Below are positions 2,034-58,996 of a DNA stretch of 64,000 bases, piece by piece; positions within the stretch are counted from its first letter, which is position 1, and each line of letters begins with the position of its first letter. The DNA lies in assembly GCA_947179485.1 (NCBI GenBank), contig OX359245.1, forward strand, positions 33,157,067 to 33,221,066, given 5' to 3'. This DNA comes from Allacma fusca. Its lineage: Eukaryota > Arthropoda > Collembola > Symphypleona > Sminthuridae. The notes under the pieces are model-generated. The model ran no database searches. It was not told where the DNA came from and saw nothing but the letters and a program-made list of their open reading frames with translations. A program made the position numbers and the translations under genes.

Positions 2034-6015
<3,982 letters not shown>

Positions 6016-17100: not shown

Positions 17101-19179
17101 CCTCAAAAATCTCAAAGTTCAAGACCCTCCTTTTTCAGGGCTTTAAAACAATCCTTACTTCGACATCAAAGTACCCGTCCAAAACAGTCAATCTTCCAGA
17201 ATCCTTTTACAACCCAAACGCCCTTCACGAAGTTAGTCAGTTATGGCCCACCTACCCCGAAACCTACCCCGAGACCTATCCCGAAACCTACCCAACAGGA
17301 AGTTAAGCAAATAGCCCCTTTGGATATTCTAGGGATAAATAACGGTATACGTTTCCCCATTGTTGCCAATTCTCCGAGCAAAACTCCAACTATGCCCTCC
17401 TGGTCAAATTTCCTTAATGATCATTTAAATAGAATGAGCGTAATCAGCACCGGATTCTCGAAGGCCCTTCGCCCTGAGATTTGGGAGAATCAAAATACAC
17501 CTGCGTCTGCCTCTGGAATTCCCGCCTTTGGAAATCAACCCCAATTGTCGCAAGCTTATTTGCCACCAATAGAAAATGAACCAGTGACCCATTTAGTACC
17601 ATCAGCTAACAAAGTAACCCAACTAGGAGATTCTTATTTACCTCCGAATAATCAAAATGCCCCAACAACTCATTTGCTACCAGCGTCCAATCACTTGACA
17701 CAAGTATCACAAGCTTATGAGGCTCCGAATCAGAGCGCCAAATATGAAGTGCCCAGGAAGGAAAATGCTGCTTTGAAAGTATCAGTTACTGAAAATCCCC
17801 CAACTGCTATTTCCCCAGGACCTTCCTCAACTACCTCAAGTATATTGCAAGAGGCTTACGGGTTACCAAATCAAAAAGCCCCTAAAATTATTGCCCAGGG
17901 AGGGGTTTCTACATTATTGAACAACAATGGACTATTTTCTCAAGTCCTTACAAACTCTTATGCCTTACCGGAATCAGTTTTTGCAGTGCCTTTGGAAGCT
18001 TACGGAATACCTCAGGCTTCACCTAGCCCAGTGTCTAATGCTGCAATACTGGACAATGCTGGGCACTTCCCCCGACCACCAGTATACATTGAGGACAAAT
18101 TCCAGAGTGAAGGTACTCCGAATCTTGTGAATACCATTGAAAATAGCGTTCCTGCCCCTCCAATTAGCAATGAAAATCCTCACCAGGAACAAATTCAAGA
18201 AAACAATTCTGCAGAACAAAATCCCCATAATAGTCCAAATAATGGATTTGAAAATGCCCACAATAACCCAAATAATGGATTTGAAAATGCCCACAATAAC
18301 CCAAATAATGGATTTGAAAATGCCCACAATAACCCAAATAATGGATTTGAAAATGCCCACAATAGCCCAAATAATGGATTCGAAAATGCCCACAATAGCC
18401 CAAATAATGGATTTGAAAATGCCCACAATAGCCCAAATGAGCAGTTCGAAAATGCCCACAATAGCCCAAATGAGCAGTTCGAAAATGCCCACAATAGCCC
18501 AAATGAGCAGTTCGAAAATGCCCACAACAGCCCAAATGAACAGTTTGAAAATGCCCACAACAGTCCAATTGAACAGTTTGAAAATTCCGATAGTACTTCA
18601 AATGAGCAATATGAAAATGCCCATAATAACCCAAATGTAAACACACAAAATAGCCCAAATGTCCCAAATGAACATTTTCATAATGCCCCTCATGAGCAAT
18701 ATGCAAATGTACATACACACACATTACAGAGCTTATCACCCCATTCAAATTTTGAAGAAGCAAATTCAGGACGTTTTCCCAATCAAAACACTTTTATAGC
18801 CCAAAATATCCCCGACAGTCACGCCCAATTTTATAACGGTCCTTTGAGTATACAAAACATCAACTCACAAGTTCCCTCTTATGACGGTGACTTTGGCAGA
18901 GTACTAAATTACCAACGACCAAGTAGCGAGCTCTCATCAAATCAAAACATACCCAAGGATGACTTTGATCGCTCCTTTGAAGTCACAACTTTCAGACCAC
19001 CAGCTCATTACTTCAAAGAAATTTTGGAGGTTGCTGAAACATCGAACAAAAATATTATCCCTTACAGTTCTAGAACTAAACATCCTGTAAATTCTTCAAC
19101 GGACCGTCAAGATGCAGCTAAAAACAAATTTCTAGCAAACCATGGGTTCGTACGTAGATTCCCATCGAGGAAAGCTTGA
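14175..19179 (+). CDS. GMC oxidoreductase (glucose-dehydrogenase-like) with a very long disordered C-terminal tail
   Basis: Exons 14175-14361, 14668-14873, 14968-15154, 15261-15392, 15508-15629, 15748-15918 and 16177-19179 join to 1335 residues; usual insect members have about 550-650. The domain shows the FAD-binding VGAGSAG and LLLEAGG, GMC signature 1 around GKSLGGTSNLNF, signature 2 around GAVQTPKILMLSGIGP, and the catalytic-histidine motif LHHIVGTASMG. The end of the domain reads VTNTQAPCIMIGEKGADMI, where the family normally has NTNAP. The catalytic second Asn therefore appears to be Gln. After about residue 626 there is a tail of about 710 residues rich in Asn, Pro, Ser and Gln. It contains twelve 11-residue repeats (FENAHN[N/S]PNNG or ...PNEQ) near residues 1018-1150 and SYLPP/AYGLP-type repeats before them. 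The N-terminus has one hydrophobic segment at residues 21-36, a possible secretion signal or anchor. Enzyme activity is uncertain. Confidence 0.88.
18224..18630 (+). repeat. 33-bp in-frame coding tandem repeat
   Basis: About twelve units of 33 bp encode the 11-residue FENAHN-x-PN-x-x repeat. The first six units encode the NNG form, later units the NEQ form, and the last two diverge (FENSDS, YENAHN). Because 33 is a multiple of three the frame is kept, and other frames on both strands are also open through the block. Confidence 0.92.
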
Positions 19180-45580: not shown

Positions 45581-46384
45581 TGAGCAAATCAAGATTTCTG
45601 TTGTAACACACTTTACTCCAACCATTTAGAAGTTATTTTAAATAAGATGTAATGTGACGGCTATGAATGAGAAGGGCAAGGGATAGTAGCAAAAGAGTGG
45701 CTGGTTCTTCTGCGACGGGAGTGACGATTGGTACAGTAATTGCGGGTGGAGTTTTTTATGTTTATTAAGATTTCAGATTTATTAGGATTCTTGTGGGGCG
45801 GCGCCCATATCATCCATACAAATCAAATAATATAAATTAGAGAGTTGCCAGGAAAGTATTCCTGGAAAAATTTTATGTTTATTGTTAGAGTAGAGTGTTC
45901 ACGGTGTAGTGACACTTATGGATACCTTGCCCTGGTAAAGGATACGGAATGAGTCAAAAATGAAAGTAGACGTTCAAAAACGGCTAAAATGAAGACAAGG
46001 AGGAAGGAAGGCTTGAAAATTTTGGTACTAAAGGTAAGGTTATATAGGAAGGCTCAATTTATCCTAAGGATTAGGGTAAGCGTGATAAAAATAGCGCTGC
46101 AAGGACAAGGACATCCGATGGCAAGAAATAGAGATAAATGTTTCACGTACTTTCCACGTATGTACATATGTATAAAACGACGAAAAGATGACGTTAGCAA
46201 AGCATTCAGACAAACGCGAGAACACAATATGTCGCGAGACTCATTTTTAGGGCGGCGTCAGTCCTCTTATAAAATCGTGTTGACCGTGTGGGTCTGTATG
46301 TCATGCCGATTTCCTCTGAAACTATTGGACCAATGGCGTCAAAATTTGTTTTACATTCTTTTGGGCAAAAACTCGTATGTGCTC
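45581..46384. other. No gene seen
   Basis: Spacer between the transposon and the inverted repeats of the DUF4806 locus. A segment near 46300-46360 (TTCCTCTGAAACTATTGGACC) has a looser look-alike at about 58660-58700. An open + strand frame at 45989-46474 is basic, repeat-derived in its last third and not convincing as a gene. Confidence 0.45.
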
Positions 46385-46848
46385 CCCAGTAAACCACGAA
46401 TTCATGGGCCAGTACTGGGCCTCGAGCATTTGCCGTTACTGAAAATTAACTGGGCTTGGCCGGTGGCGCGTTAATGGGCCAGTGCTGGCAAATAGTTATG
46501 GTTGCTTGCGGGTACGTGTACGGTCAAATGCAGGGTACCATTCAAGAAACATTGCAGGGCCTAGATCGGTTCGCAATTTCTTTTGTCATGGCTATCGGAT
46601 GATTTTGGATGTCGGGCCAAGACTGGCTTATGAATATCAGCCCAATAATGGCTTATACATATCGGGCCAATGATGGCTTATTTATGAGGAACCAATGAGT
46701 GAATTATGCTGGTCATCGATGGAAGTGGTATGGCTAGTGTGTAATTGCATGTCGATTAATTAGCCATGGCAGGTTCCTTTATTTATAGAATTCCAACAGT
46801 GGATTAATATTTTTAATCTGTAAAAATTGCATATGTAAACAATAATAA

Positions 46849-47370
46849 CTATGAAAAAATCAAGTCAAATGTTAAGGGGATACATACGAATTCGGATATA
46901 TTGTCTACATTAGGCAAAAGAACACATTTTTGCTTAAGTCTAGTAATAGGAATATCCACAGCAGTTGTCGTACCATGACATACATAGATACATAAAAATT
47001 TGCTGTCTACGGGGTAATCATCCAAAGCTCTTAAATTAATAAAATATTTACATGTAACAATACCACTGGGACAATTTTGTAAACCTGTTAAAATTACAAC
47101 TCGAAAATCTTTAGTCATGAAACAGTTGTCACCCTCAAGAGTAGATAGCAAAACATTATTGAGAATGAACTTATTATTATTTGACTTAAAGATAAATCCC
47201 TGTGATAATGGCCTTATTGATTTATATACATTTCCTTCCAGTTCGGTGATACGATTAACAATTTGCTGAACGAAATGTTTTTTAGATCGAACCATTTTCT
47301 TTAGTGTTTGCATGTAATTTTCGAAATCAAAAGCACTAAAGTAAAGTAGTTTCAAAATCATTGTAGTCAT
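46849..47370 (-). CDS. Unrecognised protein, possibly transposon-associated (5' end unresolved)
   Basis: A 173-codon - strand frame. It contains a helical MQTLKKMVRSKKHFVQQIV region, then a beta-rich part with VVILTGLQNCPSGIVTCKYF, FLCIYVCHGTT and QKCVLLPNVDNISEFVCIPL. This order (a strand ending in VxxKYF, then PVDSKF, then KCVLLP, then FVxIPL) reminds me of the C-terminal parts of some transposon-encoded proteins; the recollection is weak. A second frame (47599-47336, starting MAAEQNEIINLQKR) overlaps both this frame and the last exon of the DUF4806 gene. It could be joined to this one by an intron ending at the TTTAG at 47327-47323. The coding potential looks real; the gene model is open. 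Confidence 0.4.
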   Translation of the reverse strand: MTTMILKLLYFSAFDFENYMQTLKKMVRSKKHFVQQIVNRITELEGNVYKSIRPLSQGFIFKSNNNKFILNNVLLSTLEGDNCFMTKDFRVVILTGLQNCPSGIVTCKYFINLRALDDYPVDSKFLCIYVCHGTTTAVDIPITRLKQKCVLLPNVDNISEFVCIPLTFDLIFS

Positions 47371-47549
47371 GCAAAATTAAATTACAACTACAATTACCAA
47401 TGTCGGGGGAAATTCTTTCTGCACTTGTATCTACGTTTAATTTACTAGTATGAACTTTTGACCTATCTCTAATTTCGGATAATATAGCTGACACATTTTG
47501 TGCAACTTTTCGACGTCTTGATCTCTCCGGTTGACGCAAGAGTAATTGA

Positions 47550-50500
47550 TTACTCTTTCGTTTCTGCAGGTTTATGATTTCGTTTTGCTCGGCCGCCATT
47601 TCGATCTCCGGATCCCAGTAACCACTTTTTTACAAAGTTTTCAACTACTGCTTCAGAAGGCTCTGAGTCGTCTTGCTTCTTTCGGACCGAAGCTAAAAGC
47701 AATGGACAAATGAGCTGTAAACCCATGACATGTGAACGTATAGGTGTATACTTGTATGAATAAGATTTTCAGTACCCGTAATGCAGTTTAGTAGTAAGTG
47801 CCCCTTGAAAGCAATTTTTGATTTTGTTCCACCAAATGTCATGCTATTTGCTAGATCTCCACCAATGGTTCTTTGAAGAATTCGTTTTATAAAATTCTCC
47901 ACATCGTGACCTCCAATTCCTTTCAAAAACTTGATCTGAAAAGTAATTATATTCGTGTAAGAGATTTTTATTTTTGTTACTTCATCCGGTGTGCTTACTT
48001 TATACCAAAAAACGAATTTTGGAAAATGGAAGTATTGTCACAATGAATTTAAAACTCTATTCATGTAGAGGTGAACGATATTAAACACAGAAAGATAATT
48101 TTAATATAATGCTTACAAGTTTCATTCGATTATCAGAGTGCTTCAACCAGTCATTCAATTCGCCCCAGGATTTTTCTGTTTGCAAAGGTAAAGTAACTTC
48201 CAGGTCAGACTCGTCCACATACATATCTGAAACTCCGAACGTAATAACCTGTGACATATGGCAAATCTCATCCTTGAGCTGTACAAACTGTTTTGTAAAA
48301 GCTTCCTGGAATCCTGAAATAAAAAGTAACATTATTCTATATTTATTTGTTCCAATAATTACAATATTAAATCAAACGGGCTGGCTTTTACTTTCCCGAC
48401 CAGATTTTCGAATACTACCACCTACCACCTACCACCTGACATACCACTTTACATACCACCTACCGGTAATTTTGCATACCACCTACCACCTTACACACCA
48501 CCTCACCTACCACCTACCGGCAGTCTTACATACCACCTACCGGCAGTCTTACATACCACCTACTGTTTTGGTGGTATGTTCTGGTGGTATGTTTTGGTGG
48601 TATGTTTTGGTGGTATGTTGGTGGTATGTTGGTGGTATGTTTTGGTGGTATGTTGGTGGTATGTTTTGGTGGTATGTTGGTGGTATGTTGGTGGTATGTT
48701 GGTGGTATGTTGGTGGTATGTTTTGGTGGTATGTTGGTGGTATGTTGGTGGTATGTTTTGGTGGTATGTTGGTGGTATGTTTTGGTGGTATGTTGGTGGT
48801 ATGTTGGTGGTATGTTGGTGGTATGTTGGTGGTATGTTGGTGGTATGTTTTGGTGGTATGTTGGTGGTATGTTTTGGTGGTATGTTGGTGGTATGTTTTG
48901 GTGGTATGTTGGTGGTATGTTTTGGTGGTATGTTGGTGGTATGTTTTGGTGGTATGTTTTGGTGGTATGTTGGTGGTATGTTTTGGTGGTATGTTGGTGG
49001 TATGTTTTGGTGGTATGTTTTGGTGGTATGTTGGTGGTATGTTTTGGTGGTATGTTTTGGTGGTATGTTGGTGGTATGTTGGTGGTATGTTGGTGGTATG
49101 TTGGTGGTATGTTTTGGTGGTATGTTGGTGGTATGTTTTGGTGGTATGTTGGTGGTATGTTGGTGGTATGTTGGTGGTATGTTGGTGGTATGTTGGTGGT
49201 ATGTTGGTGGTATGTTGGTGGTATGTTGGTGGTATGTTGGTGGTATGTTGGTGGTATGTTGGTGGTATGTTTTGGTGGCATGTTGGTGGTATGTTTTGGT
49301 GGTATGTTGGTGGTATGTTTTGGTGGTATGTTGGTGGTATGTTGGTGGTATGTTGGTGGTATGTTGGTGGTATGTTTTGGTGGTATGTTGGTGGTATGTT
49401 GGTGGTATGTTTTGGTGGTATGTTGGTGGTATGTTTTGGTGGTATGTTGGTGGTATGTTGGTGGTATGTTGGTGGTATGTTGGTGGTATGTTGGTGGTAT
49501 GTTGGTGGTATGTTGGTGGTATGTTGGTGGTATGTTGGTGGTATGTTGGTGGTATGTTGGTGGTATGTTTTGGTGGTATGTTTTGGTGGTATGTTGGTGG
49601 TATGTTGGTGGTATGTTTTGGTGGTATGTTGGTGGTATGTTTTGGTGGTATGTTGGTGGTATGTTTTGGTGGTATGTTTTGGTGGTATGTTGGTGGTATG
49701 TTTTGGTGGTATGTTGGTGGTATGTTTTGGTGGTATGTTTTGGTGGTATGTTGGTGGTATGTTTTGGTGGTATGTTTTGGTGGTATGTTGGTGGTATGTT
49801 GGTGGTATGTTGGTGGTATGTTGGTGGTATGTTTTGGTGGTATGTTGGTGGTATGTTTTGGTGGTATGTTGGTGGTATGTTGGTGGTATGTTGGTGGTAT
49901 GTTGGTGGTATGTTGGTGGTATGTTGGTGGTATGTTGGTGGTATGTTGGTGGTATGTTGGTGGTATGTTGGTGGTATGTTGGTGGTATGTTTTGGTGGTA
50001 TGTTGGTGGTATGTTTTGGTGGTATGTTGGTGGTATGTTGGTGGTATGTTGGTGGTATGTTGGTGGTATGTTGGTGGTATGTTTTGGTGGTATGTTGGTG
50101 GTATGTTGGTGGTATGTTGGTGGTATGTTGGTGGTATGTTTTGGTGGTATGTTGGTGGTATGTTTTGGTGGTATGTTGGTGGTATGTTGGTGGTATGTTG
50201 GTGGTATGTTGGTGGTATGTTGGTGGTATGTTGGTGGTATGTTGGTGGTATGTTGGTGGTATGTTGGTGGTATGTTGGTGGTATGTTGGTGGTATGTTTT
50301 GGTGGTATGTTGGTGGTATGTTTTGGTGGTATGTTGGTGGTATGTTGGTGGTATGTTGGTGGTATGTTGGTGGTATATTTCAGTGGTATGTTGGTGGTAT
50401 ATTTCAGTGGTATGTTGGTGGTACATTTCAGTGGTATGCTGGTGGTACCTTTCGGTGTTATGTTTCTTTTGCCTATTCATATATTTTAAATCCCAACGTT

Positions 50501-53500
50501 GTTCTCTTTTAATTTCAAATCATGAAACGTATATTTTTTTATAGGGCCAGGGTATGTTTTCTCGATATCGTCCAAATTTTTAAAAAACTTGTTACCCCAA
50601 TTATTTTTTTCTAAAGTCAATCTCAACTAGTTTTTGCAAATGCACTCCGCTAATTGTAAATCGACAGCTTGAGAACCACTTCCACCAAAAATCTGCTTCA
50701 ATAGATTTGTTTTTGAAGTGAATTAATAAACGATTCCCACATATCGTCGGCTAAATTCTGAAACCTATTCTAGATTCTGAGATCCCATTTAAAAGCATAA
50801 TTTACGAAATGAAAATGGTATCTTTTAAAAATTAAGCAATGATATGTTCCCTGCCTTTCTGAAGATAACCATTCCACATAGTTGAAATACACTGAAAGCT
50901 CGTTCGTCAGTAACAGTAAAGTAACATTATTCTATATTTATTTGTTCCAATAATTACAATATTAAATCAAACGGGCTGGCTTTTACTTTCCCGACCAGAT
51001 TTTCGAATACTACCACCTACCACCTACCACCTGACATACCACTTTACATACCACCTACCGGTAATTTTGCATACCACCTACCACCTTACATACCACCTCA
51101 CCTACCACCTACCGGCAGTCTTACATACCACCTACCGGCAGTCTTACATACCACCTACTGTTTTGGTGGTATGTTCTGGTGGTATGTTTTGGTGGTATGT
51201 TTTGGTGGTATGTTGGTGGTATGTTGGTGGTATGTTTTGGTGGTATGTTGGTGGTATGTTTTGGTGGTATGTTGGTGGTATGTTGGTGGTATGTTGGTGG
51301 TATGTTGGTGGTATGTTTTGGTGGTATGTTGGTGGTATGTTGGTGGTATGTTTTGGTGGTATGTTGGTGGTATGTTTTGGTGGTATGTTGGTGGTATGTT
51401 GGTGGTATGTTGGTGGTATGTTGGTGGTATGTTGGTGGTATGTTTTGGTGGTATGTTGGTGGTATGTTTTGGTGGTATGTTGGTGGTATGTTTTGGTGGT
51501 ATGTTGGTGGTATGTTTTGGTGGTATGTTGGTGGTATGTTTTGGTGGTATGTTTTGGTGGTATGTTGGTGGTATGTTTTGGTGGTATGTTGGTGGTATGT
51601 TTTGGTGGTATGTTTTGGTGGTATGTTGGTGGTATGTTTTGGTGGTATGTTTTGGTGGTATGTTGGTGGTATGTTGGTGGTATGTTGGTGGTATGTTGGT
51701 GGTATGTTTTGGTGGTATGTTGGTGGTATGTTTTGGTGGTATGTTGGTGGTATGTTGGTGGTATGTTGGTGGTATGTTGGTGGTATGTTGGTGGTATGTT
51801 GGTGGTATGTTGGTGGTATGTTGGTGGTATGTTGGTGGTATGTTGGTGGTATGTTGGTGGTATGTTGGTGGTATGTTTTGGTGGTATGTTGGTGGTATGT
51901 TTTGGTGGTATGTTGGTGGTATGTTTTGGTGGTATGTTGGTGGTATGTTGGTGGTATGTTGGTGGTATGTTGGTGGTATGTTTTGGTGGTATGTTGGTGG
52001 TATGTTGGTGGTATGTTTTGGTGGTATGTTGGTGGTATGTTTTGGTGGTATGTTGGTGGTATGTTGGTGGTATGTTGGTGGTATGTTGGTGGTATGTTGG
52101 TGGTATGTTTTGGTGGTATGTTTTGGTGGTATGTTGGTGGTATGTTGGTGGTATGTTTTGGTGGTATGTTGGTGGTATGTTTTGGTGGTATGTTGGTGGT
52201 ATGTTTTGGTGGTATGTTTTGGTGGTATGTTGGTGGTATGTTTTGGTGGTATGTTGGTGGTATGTTTTGGTGGTATGTTTTGGTGGTATGTTGGTGGTAT
52301 GTTTTGGTGGTATGTTTTGGTGGTATGTTGGTGGTATGTTGGTGGTATGTTGGTGGTATGTTGGTGGTATGTTTTGGTGGTATGTTGGTGGTATGTTTTG
52401 GTGGTATGTTGGTGGTATGTTGGTGGTATGTTGGTGGTATGTTGGTGGTATGTTGGTGGTATGTTGGTGGTATGTTGGTGGTATGTTGGTGGTATGTTGG
52501 TGGTATGTTGGTGGTATGTTGGTGGTATGTTGGTGGTATGTTTTGGTGGTATGTTGGTGGTATGTTTTGGTGGTATGTTGGTGGTATGTTGGTGGTATGT
52601 TGGTGGTATGTTTTGGTGGTATGTTGGTGGTATGTTTTGGTGGTATGTTGGTGGTATGTTGGTGGTATGTTGGTGGTATGTTGGTGGTATGTTGGTGGTA
52701 TGTTTTGGTGGTATGTTTTGGTGGTATGTTGGTGGTATGTTGGTGGTATGTTTTGGTGGTATGTTGGTGGTATGTTTTGGTGGTATGTTGGTGGTATGTT
52801 TTGGTGGTATGTTTTGGTGGTATGTTGGTGGTATGTTTTGGTGGTATGTTGGTGGTATGTTTTGGTGGTATGTTTTGGTGGTATGTTGGTGGTATGTTTT
52901 GGTGGTATGTTTTGGTGGTATGTTGGTGGTATGTTGGTGGTATGTTGGTGGTATGTTGGTGGTATGTTTTGGTGGTATGTTGGTGGTATGTTTTGGTGGT
53001 ATGTTGGTGGTATGTTGGTGGTATGTTGGTGGTATGTTGGTGGTATGTTGGTGGTATGTTGGTGGTATGTTGGTGGTATGTTGGTGGTATGTTGGTGGTA
53101 TGTTGGTGGTATGTTGGTGGTATGTTGGTGGTATGTTGGTGGTATGTTTTGGTGGTATGTTGGTGGTATGTTTTGGTGGTATGTTGGTGGTATGTTGGTG
53201 GTATGTTGGTGGTATGTTGGTGGTATGTTGGTGGTATGTTTTGGTGGTATGTTGGTGGTATGTTGGTGGTATGTTTTGGTGGTATGTTGGTGGTATGTTT
53301 TGGTGGTATGTTGGTGGTATGTTGGTGGTATGTTGGTGGTATGTTGGTGGTATGTTGGTGGTATGTTTTGGTGGTATGTTGGTGGTATGTTTTGGTGGTA
53401 TGTTGGTGGTATGTTTTGGTGGTATGTTGGTGGTATGTTTTGGTGGTATGTTGGTGGTATGTTTTGGTGGTATGTTTTGGTGGTATGTTGGTGGTATGTT

Positions 53501-56500
53501 TTGGTGGTATGTTGGTGGTATGTTTTGGTGGTATGTTTTGGTGGTATGTTGGTGGTATGTTTTGGTGGTATGTTTTGGTGGTATGTTGGTGGTATGTTGG
53601 TGGTATGTTGGTGGTATGTTGGTGGTATGTTTTGGTGGTATGTTGGTGGTATGTTTTGGTGGTATGTTGGTGGTATGTTGGTGGTATGTTGGTGGTATGT
53701 TGGTGGTATGTTGGTGGTATGTTGGTGGTATGTTGGTGGTATGTTGGTGGTATGTTGGTGGTATGTTGGTGGTATGTTGGTGGTATGTTGGTGGTATGTT
53801 TTGGTGGTATGTTGGTGGTATGTTTTGGTGGTATGTTGGTGGTATGTTTTGGTGGTATGTTGGTGGTATGTTGGTGGTATGTTGGTGGTATGTTGGTGGT
53901 ATGTTTTGGTGGTATGTTGGTGGTATGTTGGTGGTATGTTTGGTGGTATGTTGGTGGTATGTTTTGGTGGTATGTTGGTGGTATGTTGGTGGTATGTTGG
54001 TGGTATGTTGGTGGTATGTTGGTGGTATGTTTTGGTGGTATGTTTTGGTGGTATGTTGGTGGTATGTTGGTGGTATGTTTGGTGGTATGTTGGTGGTATG
54101 TTTTGGTGGTATGTTGGTGGTATGTTTTGGTGGTATGTTTTGGTGGTATGTTGGTGGTATGTTTTGGTGGTATGTTGGTGGTATGTTTTGGTGGTATGTT
54201 TTGGTGGTATGTTGGTGGTATGTTTTGGTGGTATGTTTTGGTGGTATGTTGGTGGTATGTTGGTGGTATGTTGGTGGTATGTTGGTGGTATGTTTTGGTG
54301 GTATGTTGGTGGTATGTTTTGGTGGTATGTTGGTGGTATGTTGGTGGTATGTTGGTGGTATGTTGGTGGTATGTTGGTGGTATGTTGGTGGTATGTTGGT
54401 GGTATGTTGGTGGTATGTTGGTGGTATGTTGGTGGTATGTTGGTGGTATGTTGGTGGTATGTTGGTGGTATGTTGGTGGTATGTTTTGGTGGTATGTTGG
54501 TGGTATGTTTTGGTGGTATGTTGGTGGTATGTTGGTGGTATGTTGGTGGTATGTTGGTGGTATGTTGGTGGTATGTTTTGGTGGTATGTTGGTGGTATGT
54601 TGGTGGTATGTTGGTGGTATGTTGGTGGTATGTTTGGTGGTATGTTGGTGGTATGTTTTGGTGGTATGTTGGTGGTATGTTGGTGGTATGTTGGTGGTAT
54701 GTTGGTGGTATGTGGTGGTATGTTGGTGGTATGTTGGTGGTATGTTGGTGGTATGTTGGTGGTATGTTGGTGGTATGTTGGTGGTATGTTGGTGGTATGT
54801 TGGTGGTATGTTTTGGTGGTATGTTGGTGGTATGTTTGTTTTGGTGGTATGTTGGTGGTATGTTGGTGGTATGTTGGTGGTATGTTGGTGGTATATTTCA
54901 GTGGTATGTTGGTGGTATATTTCAGTGGTATGTTGGTGGTATATTTCAGTGGTATGTTGGTGGTATATTTCAGTGGTATGCTGGTGGTACCTTTCGGTGT
55001 TATGTTTCTTTTGCCTATTCATATATTTTAAATCCCAACGTTGTTCTCTTTTAATTTCAAATCATGAAACGTATATTTTTTTATAGGGCCAGGGTATGTT
55101 TTCTCGATATCGTCCAAATTTTTAAAAAACTTGTTACCCCAATTATTTTTTTCTAAAGTCAATCTCAACTAGTTTTTGTAAATGCACTCCGCTAATTGTA
55201 AATCGACAGCTTGAGAACCACTTCCACCAAAAATCTGCTTCAATAGATTTGTTTTTGAAGTGAATTAATAAACGATTCCCACATATCGTCGGCTAAATTC
55301 TGAAACCTATTCTAGATTCTGAGATCCCATTTAAAAGCATAATTTACGAAATGAAAATGGTATCTTTTAAAAATTAAGCAATGATATGTTCCCTGCCTTT
55401 CTGAAGATAACCATTCCACATAGTTGAAATACACTGAAAGCTCGTTCGTCAGTAACAGTAAAGTAACATTATTCTATATTTATTTGTTCCAATAATTACA
55501 ATATTAAATCAAACGGGCTGGCTTTTACTTTCCCGACCAGATTTTCGAATACTACCACCTACCACCTACCACCTGACATACCACTTTACATACCACCTAC
55601 CGGTAATTTTGCATACCACCTACCACCTTACATACCACCTCACCTACCACCTACCGGCAGTCTTACATACCACCTACCGGCAGTCTTACATACCACCTAC
55701 TGTTTTGGTGGTATGTTCTGGTGGTATGTTTTGGTGGTATGTTTTGGTGGTATGTTGGTGGTATGTTGGTGGTATGTTTTGGTGGTATGTTGGTGGTATG
55801 TTTTGGTGGTATGTTGGTGGTATGTTGGTGGTATGTTGGTGGTATGTTGGTGGTATGTTTTGGTGGTATGTTGGTGGTATGTTGGTGGTATGTTTTGGTG
55901 GTATGTTGGTGGTATGTTTTGGTGGTATGTTGGTGGTATGTTGGTGGTATGTTGGTGGTATGTTGGTGGTATGTTGGTGGTATGTTTTGGTGGTATGTTG
56001 GTGGTATGTTTTGGTGGTATGTTGGTGGTATGTTTTGGTGGTATGTTGGTGGTATGTTTTGGTGGTATGTTGGTGGTATGTTTTGGTGGTATGTTTTGGT
56101 GGTATGTTGGTGGTATGTTTTGGTGGTATGTTGGTGGTATGTTTTGGTGGTATGTTTTGGTGGTATGTTGGTGGTATGTTTTGGTGGTATGTTTTGGTGG
56201 TATGTTGGTGGTATGTTGGTGGTATGTTGGTGGTATGTTGGTGGTATGTTTTGGTGGTATGTTGGTGGTATGTTTTGGTGGTATGTTGGTGGTATGTTGG
56301 TGGTATGTTGGTGGTATGTTGGTGGTATGTTGGTGGTATGTTGGTGGTATGTTGGTGGTATGTTGGTGGTATGTTGGTGGTATGTTGGTGGTATGTTGGT
56401 GGTATGTTGGTGGTATGTTGGTGGTATGTTTTGGTGGTATGTTGGTGGTATGTTTTGGTGGTATGTTGGTGGTATGTTTTGGTGGTATGTTGGTGGTATG

Positions 56501-57899
56501 TTGGTGGTATGTTGGTGGTATGTTGGTGGTATGTTTTGGTGGTATGTTGGTGGTATGTTGGTGGTATGTTTTGGTGGTATGTTGGTGGTATGTTTTGGTG
56601 GTATGTTGGTGGTATGTTGGTGGTATGTTGGTGGTATGTTGGTGGTATGTTGGTGGTATGTTCCTATTCTAGATTCTGAGATCCCATTTAAAAGCATAAT
56701 TTACGAAATGAAAATGGTATCTTTTAAAAATTAAGCAATGATATGTTCCCTGCCTTTCTGAAGATAACCATTCCACATAGTTGAAATACACTGAAAGCTC
56801 GTTCGTCAGTATCAATTTGTCAAATGAAATAAGTAAAACCAATTGTTTCGGATTTCAGCACGTCTAAATTCACGCCCATCTTTCATTTGCAATGAATCAA
56901 GGAAAGTAAAAGCCAGCCAATCAAACGTTTGCTTATGGAACAACGCAATCAAATCCAAGAATAGTCACAAACGTCTGAGCTCCGTTGTGAGATTGTCAAT
57001 TTTTACAGACAATGTTTCCGATCGTTCTTCATCTAAATTTAACACCCCGAAATCAGAGCTATGCGGGATGCTGATAGGATTTTCGGTTTGGTTAGCAACC
57101 ACTGCGGTAACGACTGCTGCAATTTATAAAGCATTTAGAACCATCATTATCTAATTTATTTTTGTATATAATATTCCCCACAATGTCTTGTTTGTTGTTA
57201 AATTGTATTGTTTTTAATTTAAACTTACAATTTGGACCCTGTGCTAGAAATTCTACCGAATCAAAAATGTTCCCAATTAATCCAAGGTCAGGCTGGTTGT
57301 CGACTCCGTTTAAATTTTGGTGAAATGTTTCAGTCATTGGCTGAAAAAAAGGTGGTGATTCATTAGGTAGTTGCGAAGATCCAGCACAATTAGTACTTGA
57401 AATCTGTTGACGACTATGAGGTAAAATCGGGTTTAAAGCTTGTGGCTTCCGGTTTCTCAAGCGCCGCTTTGGTGTTACCACAGTGTTGCCATCCGATTCA
57501 CTAAATTCGAAGTCACTGTTTTCTACAACTTTATCTGCTCCAATTTGGGCCGTCTCAAAAGTATCTAGGCCAGAAAACAGACACATAACAGTATTGTACG
57601 GAGTAGATCAGATGATCATGTGTTTGTACGCTTTACATCATTTACTTATCCGAACAATAAAATAAAATCAATATAAATCACTTACCTGCAGCTACTCGCA
57701 CTTTGCAGTTATAAATCTGCCATTTGATGTTAGGATAAAGAGACGGCTCGACACATTTTTTAATCAAATTCGTAATTTTTAGATCAATAATATTGGTGGG
57801 CCAGTGGCACTTGTTGTTTTCGTCAAAACGCCAGTTGGAGGGAACGGCTTCAACACTTTTGTCCTTGGCAAACTCCACAATATAGAAGAATGGCTTCAT
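47550..57899 (-). CDS. DUF4806-domain protein with satellite-filled intron
   Basis: Six - strand exons: 57899-57686, 57564-57229, 57116-56973, 48313-48117, 47935-47776 and 47692-47550 (TAA). They join in phase to 397 residues. Exon 1 reads FYIVEFAKDKSVEAVPSNW followed by CHWP, the usual N-terminus of these proteins. Exons 2-3 code for a polar linker with a basic patch (PKRRLRNRKPQ). Exons 4-6 carry the DUF4806 core: LPLQTEKSWGELNDWL, FLKGIGGHDVENFIKRIL and GTKSKIAFKGHLLL. The end (VVENFVKKWL then GDRNGGRAKR) also fits. The molecular function of the domain is unknown. Intron 3 (56972-48314, about 8.7 kb) contains the whole satellite region and has a weak GTTTGT donor. The transcript across the arrays would be A/C-rich, repeating ATACCACCAAC. 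No frame damage was found. Confidence 0.8.
48415..48563. repeat. C/A-rich inverted arm of satellite, copy 1
   Basis: About ten loose TACCACC or ATACCACC words, the reverse complement of the satellite core, with CTACCGGCAGTCTTACATAC repeated twice. It joins the G/T array head-to-head at ATACCACCTACTGTTTTGGT, so the junction can fold back. Equivalent arms lie at about 51005-51160 and 55550-55703. Confidence 0.85.
48564..50452. repeat. GGTGGTATG satellite array, copy 1
   Basis: An unbroken array of two unit types: TTGGTGGTATG (11 bp) and TTTTGGTGGTATG (13 bp). The order of the short and long units repeats in longer blocks. The right end changes into units containing ATATTTCAGTGGTATG. Long open frames on both strands exist only because the units contain no stop codon in any frame. 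Confidence 0.97.
51161..54990. repeat. GGTGGTATG satellite array, copy 2 (longest)
   Basis: About 3.8 kb of the same 11-bp and 13-bp units. Between about 53940 and 54840 rare length variants appear: 12-bp units (GTTTGGTGGTAT near 53940, 54079 and 54632), a 10-bp unit (near 54714) and TTTGTTTTGG near 54834. The right end has four ATATTTCAGTGGTATG units where copy 1 has three related units. Confidence 0.97.
55704..56662. repeat. GGTGGTATG satellite array, copy 3 (truncated)
   Basis: About 0.96 kb. It starts like the other two but stops abruptly at GGTATGTT|CCTATTCTAG, which lies in the middle of the spacer in the other copies. The ATATTTCAG units and the first part of the spacer are missing, indicating a deletion. 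Confidence 0.95.
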
Positions 57900-58574
57900 G
57901 AGGCCTTCAATTGAAGTAAAGTACAAGAGAACTGAATTCACAACTCGGTATAAAATGGATGAACCACACTGTTAATATTTTTACTTTGAATGATTTCAAA
58001 CTGGGTTCAGTTGACACTTATGACGCTGCTGCTGTATAACAATAGCATGCCGTATCATAAAGTGTGCATGTGGGAGTCAGCGTTGAACCAGACCAAGCCT
58101 TAAACCTTGCTGGTTAGCCTCATTTGCATCGCTGAGTCAAGCTCCGCCTACATTATGTTGAAATTTAACGGTAAAATACTGGCCAGCCTTAAAAACTTAC
58201 ATGCCCGAATTTGGTTGTAGTTACCAGCACGGGCCCAATAATGGTTTAGATTTTCTAGTTTACTGGAAGATAAATCTTTGGCATGCCAGCCTCGGACCAG
58301 TGTAGGTAAAATCTTGGCAAAAATGATTCTTTGAAACTTACACTGGTCAGCCAGCTTTTAACCGTGAGCCAGTAAGCCCGAACAAAATCGGTAAACGGAC
58401 CATTACAGGGTTTATGATTTTTGCCAATAAATAGTGGTAGTCGAATGTGCCATCACGGCGCCTGGTGATAACCGAAGTTGGATTTCACGGTGAAATTCAG
58501 GTTTGCCTCAATATTCCGTGTGCCTATGTTGAGCCATCAATACCAACAAAGGCCCTATGTAGGGCCAGATTTCC
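57900..58574. other. Upstream region of the DUF4806 gene with GGCC-type repeats
   Basis: Probable promoter and 5' UTR next to the start codon, then scattered repeats (GCACGGGCCCAATAATGG, TAGTTTACTGGA, CAGCCTCGGACCAGTG) related to those at 46400-46680. No gene seen. Confidence 0.5.
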
Positions 58575-58996
58575 TGGTTTACTGGGTCGTTATTGATTGA
58601 AATCACTCGGCGTTTTCGTGCGTAAAAATAAAATTTGTAGATACTTTTAGCACTTTTCCTCCTAAACTGATGTACCCATTTCGTTCAAAATTGTGCAAGC
58701 ATTATATTGGTCACTTCCTCGGATGAGTTCATAAGTTGATATGGGTTCACGTGTTTGTACGGAAAAAATTAAAAGGAATAAAATCTTTGATTTCTCATTA
58801 AAACGTTGAACATAAAATTCAGTTAATTTCTTCAATAAAATTCTGGTTTATCAAAGCATGTGATGTTCAAAGCAATGATTTCTTGTGAATTTACTTCTTC
58901 CGATTCCAACTCTTGCAACACTAATCACTTAGCAAGAATCACAGTATTGTACATCCGAGATGTTTTTTTTCTAAATAGTGGTAACGAATTGTGTGC

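What the first reader, a model, noticed from the sequence alone, without database searches (positions are those of the whole stretch)
48327..56815. A two-letter satellite fills one intron of a DUF4806 gene
About 6.7 kb of DNA consists only of 11-bp (TTGGTGGTATG) and 13-bp (TTTTGGTGGTATG) units. It lies inside intron 3 of a gene whose six exons are intact and in phase on both sides. A satellite made of two discrete unit lengths, with almost no base substitutions, inside a transcribed intron is unusual. The pre-mRNA would carry thousands of bases of ATACCACC-type repeats, which could bind RNA-binding proteins in bulk.
Basis: partly seen in the sequence, partly recalled or inferred. Interest (0 to 1): 0.8.

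Follow-up and report, generated by a model that had tools for sequence, protein, structure and literature searches.

The report
Transposon-borne satellite expanded inside another transposon
The satellite is real, but it is the overgrown inner repeat of a small jumping gene that landed in an intron of a gene carried by a second, larger jumping gene, so it is a well-resolved example of satellite DNA growing from a transposon rather than a strange host intron.

Summary
In detail: three arrays (6,683 bp together) of 11- and 13-bp units lie in an 8,659-bp intron between in-phase exons. The whole genome explains it as nested transposons.

(1) The satellite is the internal array of a non-autonomous Merlin-type element: inverted ends starting GGCTGGC, 8-9 bp target duplications, and a 4.7-kb relative with the same ends that carries a DDE_Tnp_IS1595 transposase domain. 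Here the target duplication is AATCAAACG; a sister copy keeps the empty site in a 109-bp intron.

(2) The "DUF4806 gene" sits inside a CACTA-related transposon, window 46385-58586, with CCCAGTAAACCA ends, 2-bp duplications and further copies with unrelated flanks.

(3) Three sister copies of the same insertion hold 43-73 units. The window holds 556, although flanking DNA differs by only about 0.4-1.5%.

The two unit lengths occur in other copies of the family. Nothing supports an RNA-sponge role. This is a new member of a known kind, transposon-seeded satellite; its value is the graded series from empty site to expanded array.

The parts
46385..58586 (-). Outer CACTA-related transposon, 12,202 bp here; ends CCCAGTAAACCA / TGGTTTACTGGG, flanked by TC / TC (46383-46384, 58587-58588)
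   Evidence: Copies at C1:10.64 and 76.49 Mb end at the same bases with unrelated flanks and 2-bp duplications TC/TC and CA/CA
46852..47376 (-). Remnant of the outer element's transposase-like ORF; 1,248 bp present in two other copies are missing at 47345/47346
   Evidence: 675-codon uninterrupted ORF in the 10.64-Mb copy, interrupted in the 76.49-Mb copy; DUF4218 at 24.8 bits, below the cut-off of 27
47550..57899 (-). DUF4806-like gene of the outer element, six exons in phase, 397 aa
   Evidence: no Pfam hit, pairwise match only
48314..56972 (-). Intron 3, 8,659 bp
   Evidence: 109 bp in the empty-site copy L065
48370..48378 (+). Left target duplication AATCAAACG
56919..56927 (+). Right target duplication AATCAAACG
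   Evidence: single copy of it in the empty site
48379..48541 (+). Left terminal inverted repeat of the Merlin-type element with inverted TACCACC motifs (further copies 50974-51136 and 55516-55678)
56901..56918 (-). Remnant (18 bp) of the right terminal inverted repeat; the rest is deleted here
48323..50917 (+). Higher-order copy U1
50918..55459 (+). Higher-order copy U2
55460..56814 (+). Higher-order copy U3, lacking about 300 bp of the body
48564..50450 (+). Satellite array A1
   Evidence: 154 GGTGGTATG words
51159..54992 (+). Satellite array A2
   Evidence: 320 words
55701..56662 (+). Satellite array A3
   Evidence: 82 words
50440..50917 (+). Interior of the Merlin-type element (second copy ends at 55459)
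   Evidence: 40 scored matches genome-wide, two of them the window's own

Best explanation
A non-autonomous Merlin-type DNA transposon carrying a short array of 11- and 13-bp units inserted into the short intron 3 (109 bp in the empty copy) of a DUF4806-like gene that belongs to a CACTA-related transposon, duplicating AATCAAACG (shown: target duplication and empty site). The outer element is present at several places on one contig with the inner element inside (shown: copies with unrelated flanks). In the window copy the inner element's body was duplicated in tandem; both joints are identical, so one joint was probably made by end joining and then copied by an exchange out of register (joints shown, mechanism inferred). 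The arrays also grew by copying blocks of 51-62 units (repetition shown, mechanism inferred). The two unit lengths are most simply two founder monomers inherited by the family; that 12-bp spacings are almost absent argues for copying of whole units rather than slippage in the T run (inferred). On the transcribed strand the arrays hold essentially no G, hence no GT or AG, which may be why the intron tolerates them (sequence shown, consequence inferred). No function for the host is supported.
For: Target duplication at 48370 and 56919 and an empty site with one AATCAAACG in L065. Of 30 loci read, 25 have both ends; 22 of those 25 have exact duplications of 8 (13) or 9 (9) bp. L074, with the same ends, carries a DDE_Tnp_IS1595 domain (E 2.8e-12) and the same units; a second of 36 such domains lies about 0.8 kb inside one such end on C12. 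Outer element: ends and 2-bp duplications in 3 of 3 copies read at both ends. Expansion: 556 words here against 73, 62 and 43 in three sister copies whose flanks are 98.5-99.6% identical (flanks of the 62-unit copy only partly covered). Joints identical; block word found 8 times. Spacings in 31 other loci: 11 (467), 13 (231), 12 (3), 19 (15).
Against: L074 has no matching target duplication, so it is a relative with the right parts, not a proven parent. Only 2 of 36 DDE_Tnp_IS1595 matches lie near a perfect 18-bp end. 3 of 25 complete elements lack an exact duplication (L048 with one mismatch; L054, L055) and 5 of 30 loci lacked one end. The outer element's transposase reaches no Pfam cut-off. 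An array without recognisable ends exists (L024), so not every array sits in such an element. Assembly of the arrays is unverified.
Confidence: 0.92

Rival explanations
1. A satellite that arose in place in a host gene's intron and acts through its pre-mRNA, binding RNA-binding proteins in bulk.
For: Satellite-filled introns that matter exist: kl-3 and kl-5 of Drosophila (PMC6508621, abstract seen). The gene model is intact and in phase.
Against: Empty site and target duplication show an insertion. The gene lies inside a transposon with several copies. Window against L065: 283 codons, 11 synonymous and 26 non-synonymous differences, about 21% synonymous expected without selection.
Confidence: 0.03
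2. The inner element belongs to another superfamily that makes 8-10 bp duplications (Mutator, as proposed for Tetris) and only shares ends with Merlin by mixing.
For: 8-9 bp duplications and tandem repeats beside inverted ends are also seen in Tetris, which its authors place with Mutator (PMC4079207, passages seen).
Against: The DDE_Tnp_IS1595 domain, given for Merlin in PMC8101967 (passages seen), lies inside the same ends in L074, and another lies 0.8 kb from such an end on C12. Ends start with GG.
Confidence: 0.07
3. The threefold copy is an assembly artefact (alleles or repeat copies laid in tandem).
For: Copies differ by only 1 in 248 (left parts, U1 against U2 and U3) and 1 in 453 (tails); no reads were available.
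Against: The three arrays differ in length and word order, the joints hold bases found at neither outer edge, and the repeated stretch begins and ends inside the intron, not in longer flanking DNA.
Confidence: 0.08
4. Pairing of the two intron ends in the pre-mRNA is a selected device that brings the splice sites together across the satellite.
For: 18-bp perfect inverted repeat; strict alignment score 38 against at most 33 in 2,000 shuffles; duplex -57.9 kcal/mol against at best -48.4 in 1,000 shuffles.
Against: The loose alignment score (58) is within the shuffles (maximum 65); 5 of 19,791 random pairs of window stretches score as high and 4 of 1,485 pair as strongly. The repeat is the terminal inverted repeat of the inserted element.
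Confidence: 0.03

Closest known systems
[quoted passage not shown] passages seen)
   Same: Element with inverted ends, 8-9 bp duplications and internal tandem repeats that expand into longer, more homogeneous satellite-like arrays.
   Different: Repeat of about 220 bp in the inverted ends, foldback structure, placed with Mutator by its authors; here 11/13-bp units inside the left end and a Merlin-type transposase in a relative.
Merlin superfamily (PMC8101967; passages seen)
   Same: GG ends, 8-9 bp duplications, DDE_Tnp_IS1595 transposase in a relative; tandem repeats inside two Merlin copies are mentioned there.
   Different: Here a non-autonomous copy with a kilobase-scale minisatellite.
Helentron-carried satellite-like repeats, Crassostrea gigas (PMC7492417; listing and start of abstract seen)
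   Same: Satellite-like arrays dispersed by a non-autonomous element.
   Different: Helentron, not an element with terminal inverted repeats and target duplications (the first from the title, the second recalled).
Animal CACTA-related (TRC) transposons (PMC1636069; passages seen), for the outer element
   Same: Ends starting CCC, 2-bp duplications.
   Different: Transposase_21 was not detected here; a DUF4806-like gene is carried as well.
Satellite-filled introns of kl-3 and kl-5, Drosophila (PMC6508621; abstract and outline seen)
   Same: Satellite DNA in an intron.
   Different: Megabases in Y-linked fertility genes with dedicated RNA-binding proteins; here kilobases in a transposon gene, no transcript data.

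Membership tests
Merlin (inner element) | Terminal inverted repeats with GG at the ends | tested here: met
   25 of 30 loci with both ends found (up to 3 substitutions allowed in the 18-bp end; L023's right end placed by hand); 24 of the 25 begin GGCTGG, one GACTGG; aligned ends 62-305 columns, 109-163 in 20 of 25
Merlin (inner element) | 8- or 9-bp target duplication | tested here: met
   13 of 8 bp and 9 of 9 bp among 25 complete elements; three pairs share flanks, so about 19 independent (lengths tallied by hand)
Merlin (inner element) | DDE_Tnp_IS1595 transposase in the family | tested here: met
   L074, PF12762 E 2.8e-12 over a 148-aa open stretch inside the same ends; the window copy itself encodes none
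Merlin (inner element) | Mobilised by that transposase | not testable with these tools
   Needs a transposition assay
CACTA-related / TRC (outer element) | Ends starting CCC | tested here: met
   CCCAGTAAACCA in three copies read at both ends
CACTA-related / TRC (outer element) | 2-bp target duplication | tested here: met
   TC/TC, TC/TC, CA/CA in 3 of 3 copies read at both ends
CACTA-related / TRC (outer element) | Transposase_21 domain | tested here: inconclusive
   No Pfam match for the 415-aa core; the 665-aa ORF matches only DUF4218, 24.8 bits, under the cut-off of 27. That DUF4218 accompanies CACTA transposases is recalled
DUF4806 protein family (PF16064) | Match over Pfam's cut-off | tested here: not met
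   No hit for the protein or its parts; a recalled DUF4806-like sequence does hit and aligns to it at 26%
Introner | The element creates the intron and supplies splice sites | tested here: not met
   The intron exists at 109 bp without the element
Transposon-seeded satellite (Tetris type) | Short array inside the element in most copies, expanded array in a few | tested here: met
   4-73 GGTGGTATG words in 25 complete elements against 556 here
Functional satellite intron (kl-3/kl-5 type) | Transcribed intron bound by specific proteins | not testable with these tools
   No RNA or protein data

The most novel reading that the evidence does not exclude
In this orientation the array is G-free in the transcript and so hidden from splicing.
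Probability: 0.1. Interest if true: 0.6.

Novelty: new member of a known kind. Interest (0 to 1): 0.38.

Why it matters
One insertion can be followed through an empty site (109-bp intron), three modest arrays (43-73 units, introns of 1,090-1,675 bp) and a runaway array (556 units, 8,659 bp), while flanking DNA of the filled copies differs by only about 0.4-1.5%. That makes the birth of satellite DNA from a transposon measurable step by step. It also warns that a 'gene with a satellite intron' can be a transposon inside a transposon.

Tried and rejected
Intron-end RNA pairing: strong but explained by the terminal inverted repeats once other copies were read; see the rival. Introner: rejected by the 109-bp intron without the element. 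Folding of the array: 600 nt of the antisense strand fold at -79.7 kcal/mol, of the sense strand at 0.0; kept as description only. Rfam at gathering thresholds and ARAGORN gave nothing in the window. Pfam on the DUF4806-like protein gave nothing. The interior of the inner element was tried for protein: a 29-residue fragment from the window and a 74-residue ORF from L023 gave only sub-threshold hits. One search used exon 5 and exon 6 one base short; the corrected run is. One search gave three intron lengths one base short; one search corrects them. Not done: MULE transposase search, species identification, reads, RNA. That the window array is the longest in the genome was not shown: it holds 375 of 1,297 exact 24-mers, and the place list stops at the first places.
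Full report
Observation. The window has three arrays of 11- and 13-bp units on the plus strand, 6,683 bp in all; 545 of 567 tokens are exactly one of the two units. They lie in a minus-strand intron, 48314-56972, between exons that join in phase. The arrays sit in three tandem higher-order copies (48323-50917, 50918-55459, 55460-56814); left edges match over 248 bp at 99.6%, and the two joints are identical and hold bases found at neither outer edge. A word of 19 units recurs 8 times in the arrays, 51-62 units apart where it recurs within one array; the longest words shared between arrays are 60-61 units, against at most 23 in 100 shuffles. So there are three levels of repetition, the top two being recent copying.

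What brought the satellite in. The window lies in a 392.7-Mb assembly. An exact 24-mer of the satellite occurs 1,297 times there, 375 of them in the window. The non-satellite part of the unit matches 40 scored places (601 candidates at first look), two of them the window's own. I read 30 loci: 28 from that search plus L022 and L023, found through the satellite. Both ends were found in 25 of 30; five lacked one end in the stretch held (L032, L039, L045, L051, L057). The right end of L023 was placed by hand because it has diverged. Of the 25, 22 have exact flanking duplications, 13 of 8 bp and 9 of 9 bp; the other three are L048 (one mismatch), L054 and L055 (tally). L022 and L031 are the same insertion as the window's, and two further pairs share flanks, so about 19 insertions are independent. 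Aligned inverted ends measure 62-305 columns, 109-163 in 20 of 25, and hold the inverted TACCACC motifs. The perfect 18-bp end occurs 90 times in the genome. A 4,687-bp element with the same ends (L074) carries an open stretch that matches DDE_Tnp_IS1595 at E 2.8e-12, and an array of the same units. Of 36 matches to that domain in the genome, this one and one more on C12 lie within about 0.8 kb inside such an end; a third is 7.5 kb from one. GG ends, 8-9 bp duplications and this transposase domain are what PMC8101967 (passages seen) gives for Merlin. L074 lacks a matching duplication, so it is a relative with the right parts, not a proven parent.

In the window the duplication is AATCAAACG at 48370-48378 and 56919-56927. 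A sister copy at C1:59.93 Mb (L065) has one AATCAAACG in an intron of 109 bp: the empty site.

What the gene is. A second copy of the gene region at C1:10.64 Mb is 98.9-99.7% identical in the parts outside the inner element and stops at CCCAGTAAACCA / TGGTTTACTGGG, with unrelated DNA beyond. A third copy at 76.49 Mb has the same ends. The 2-bp flanks are TC/TC (window), TC/TC (10.64 Mb) and CA/CA (76.49 Mb). Seven high-identity (93-100%) copies of one end were found, the window's own included, all on C1; the six others stop at the same base or two bases on. The 10.64-Mb copy has an uninterrupted 675-codon ORF where the window has lost 1,248 bp; at 76.49 Mb it is interrupted. That ORF matches DUF4218 below the cut-off. 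CCC ends and 2-bp duplications fit the animal CACTA-related elements of PMC1636069 (passages seen; there 7 of 14 copies showed a 2-bp repeat). So the DUF4806-like gene is most likely transposon cargo. DUF4806 genes are listed among expanded domains, next to transposase domains, in Hydra (PMC7642931, passage seen), which fits but proves nothing. Between the window and L065, 283 codons show 11 synonymous and 26 non-synonymous differences where about 21% synonymous is expected without selection; L066 gives 8 and 45 with one stop; the 10.64- and 76.49-Mb copies 1 and 4, 0 and 4; L068 0 and 1. There is no sign of constraint.

How it grew. Of the seven outer copies, four hold the inner element at this site (window, 10.64, 53.56, 76.49 Mb), one is empty (59.93 Mb), and two are uninformative there (L066 lacks exons 3 and 4, L067 gives no match in the stretch held). 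The three filled sisters have 73, 62 and 43 words; the window has 154 + 320 + 82 = 556, while flanks are 98.5-99.6% identical (100% over one 152-bp piece), the 53.56-Mb copy being only partly covered. Intron 3 measures 109 (empty), 1,090, 1,225, 1,675 and 8,659 bp. Growth by duplication of the body and by block copying is read from the joints and words; the exchange mechanism is inferred.

The two lengths. In 31 loci outside the window (L024 left out), spacings are 11 (467), 13 (231), 12 (3) and 19 (15; I take these for the terminal repeats). L074 adds 11 (11), 13 (5), 12 (1), 19 (3) and 23 (2). The alphabet is a family trait. Slippage in the T run should make 12s; their near absence favours copying of whole founder units.

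Consequences for the transcript. The trimmed arrays hold one G in 6,429 nt on the transcribed strand and no GT or AG, so they offer no splice signals, and 600 nt of the sense strand do not fold (0.0 kcal/mol). That may be why the intron tolerates them; it is no evidence of function.

Place among known things. Transposons seeding satellites are known: Tetris (PMC4079207, passages seen) and Helentrons in oyster (PMC7492417, listing and start of abstract seen). Tandem repeats inside Merlin copies are mentioned in PMC8101967. I saw no report of a Merlin-borne minisatellite expanding to kilobases in the listings, which show only the best 10-15 papers of an open-licence library.

Noticed in passing
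L024 (C1:24227000-24232500), 2495-3059: A 47-word array of the same satellite with no recognisable element ends, between two direct copies (428 columns, 96%) of another sequence: the satellite also exists outside the Merlin-type element.
   Followed up: partly
C1 at 10.64, 33.2, 35.6, 53.56, 53.71, 59.93 and 76.49 Mb: All seven high-identity copies of the outer element's end lie on one contig, C1 (82 of 393 Mb), which suggests local transposition.
   Followed up: no
L074 (C8:62569180-62573960), minus strand of the element: The 4.7-kb Merlin-type element also holds long open frames rich in K, R and E repeats (202 and 288 codons), perhaps captured host sequence.
   Followed up: no
L023 (C1:17914500-17919500), 3109-4113: In this relative the 54-bp and 23-bp motifs of the terminal repeat, not the 11/13-bp unit, have expanded into arrays: a second satellite from the same element family.
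   Followed up: partly
18218-18688: A 33-bp tandem repeat lies in an open frame that continues a GMC oxidoreductase C-terminal domain and codes for NSPNNGFENAHN-like repeats.
   Followed up: no
48085-56734: The units contain no stop codon in any of six frames, so the arrays give spurious open frames of up to 1,388 codons that a gene finder could call.
   Followed up: yes
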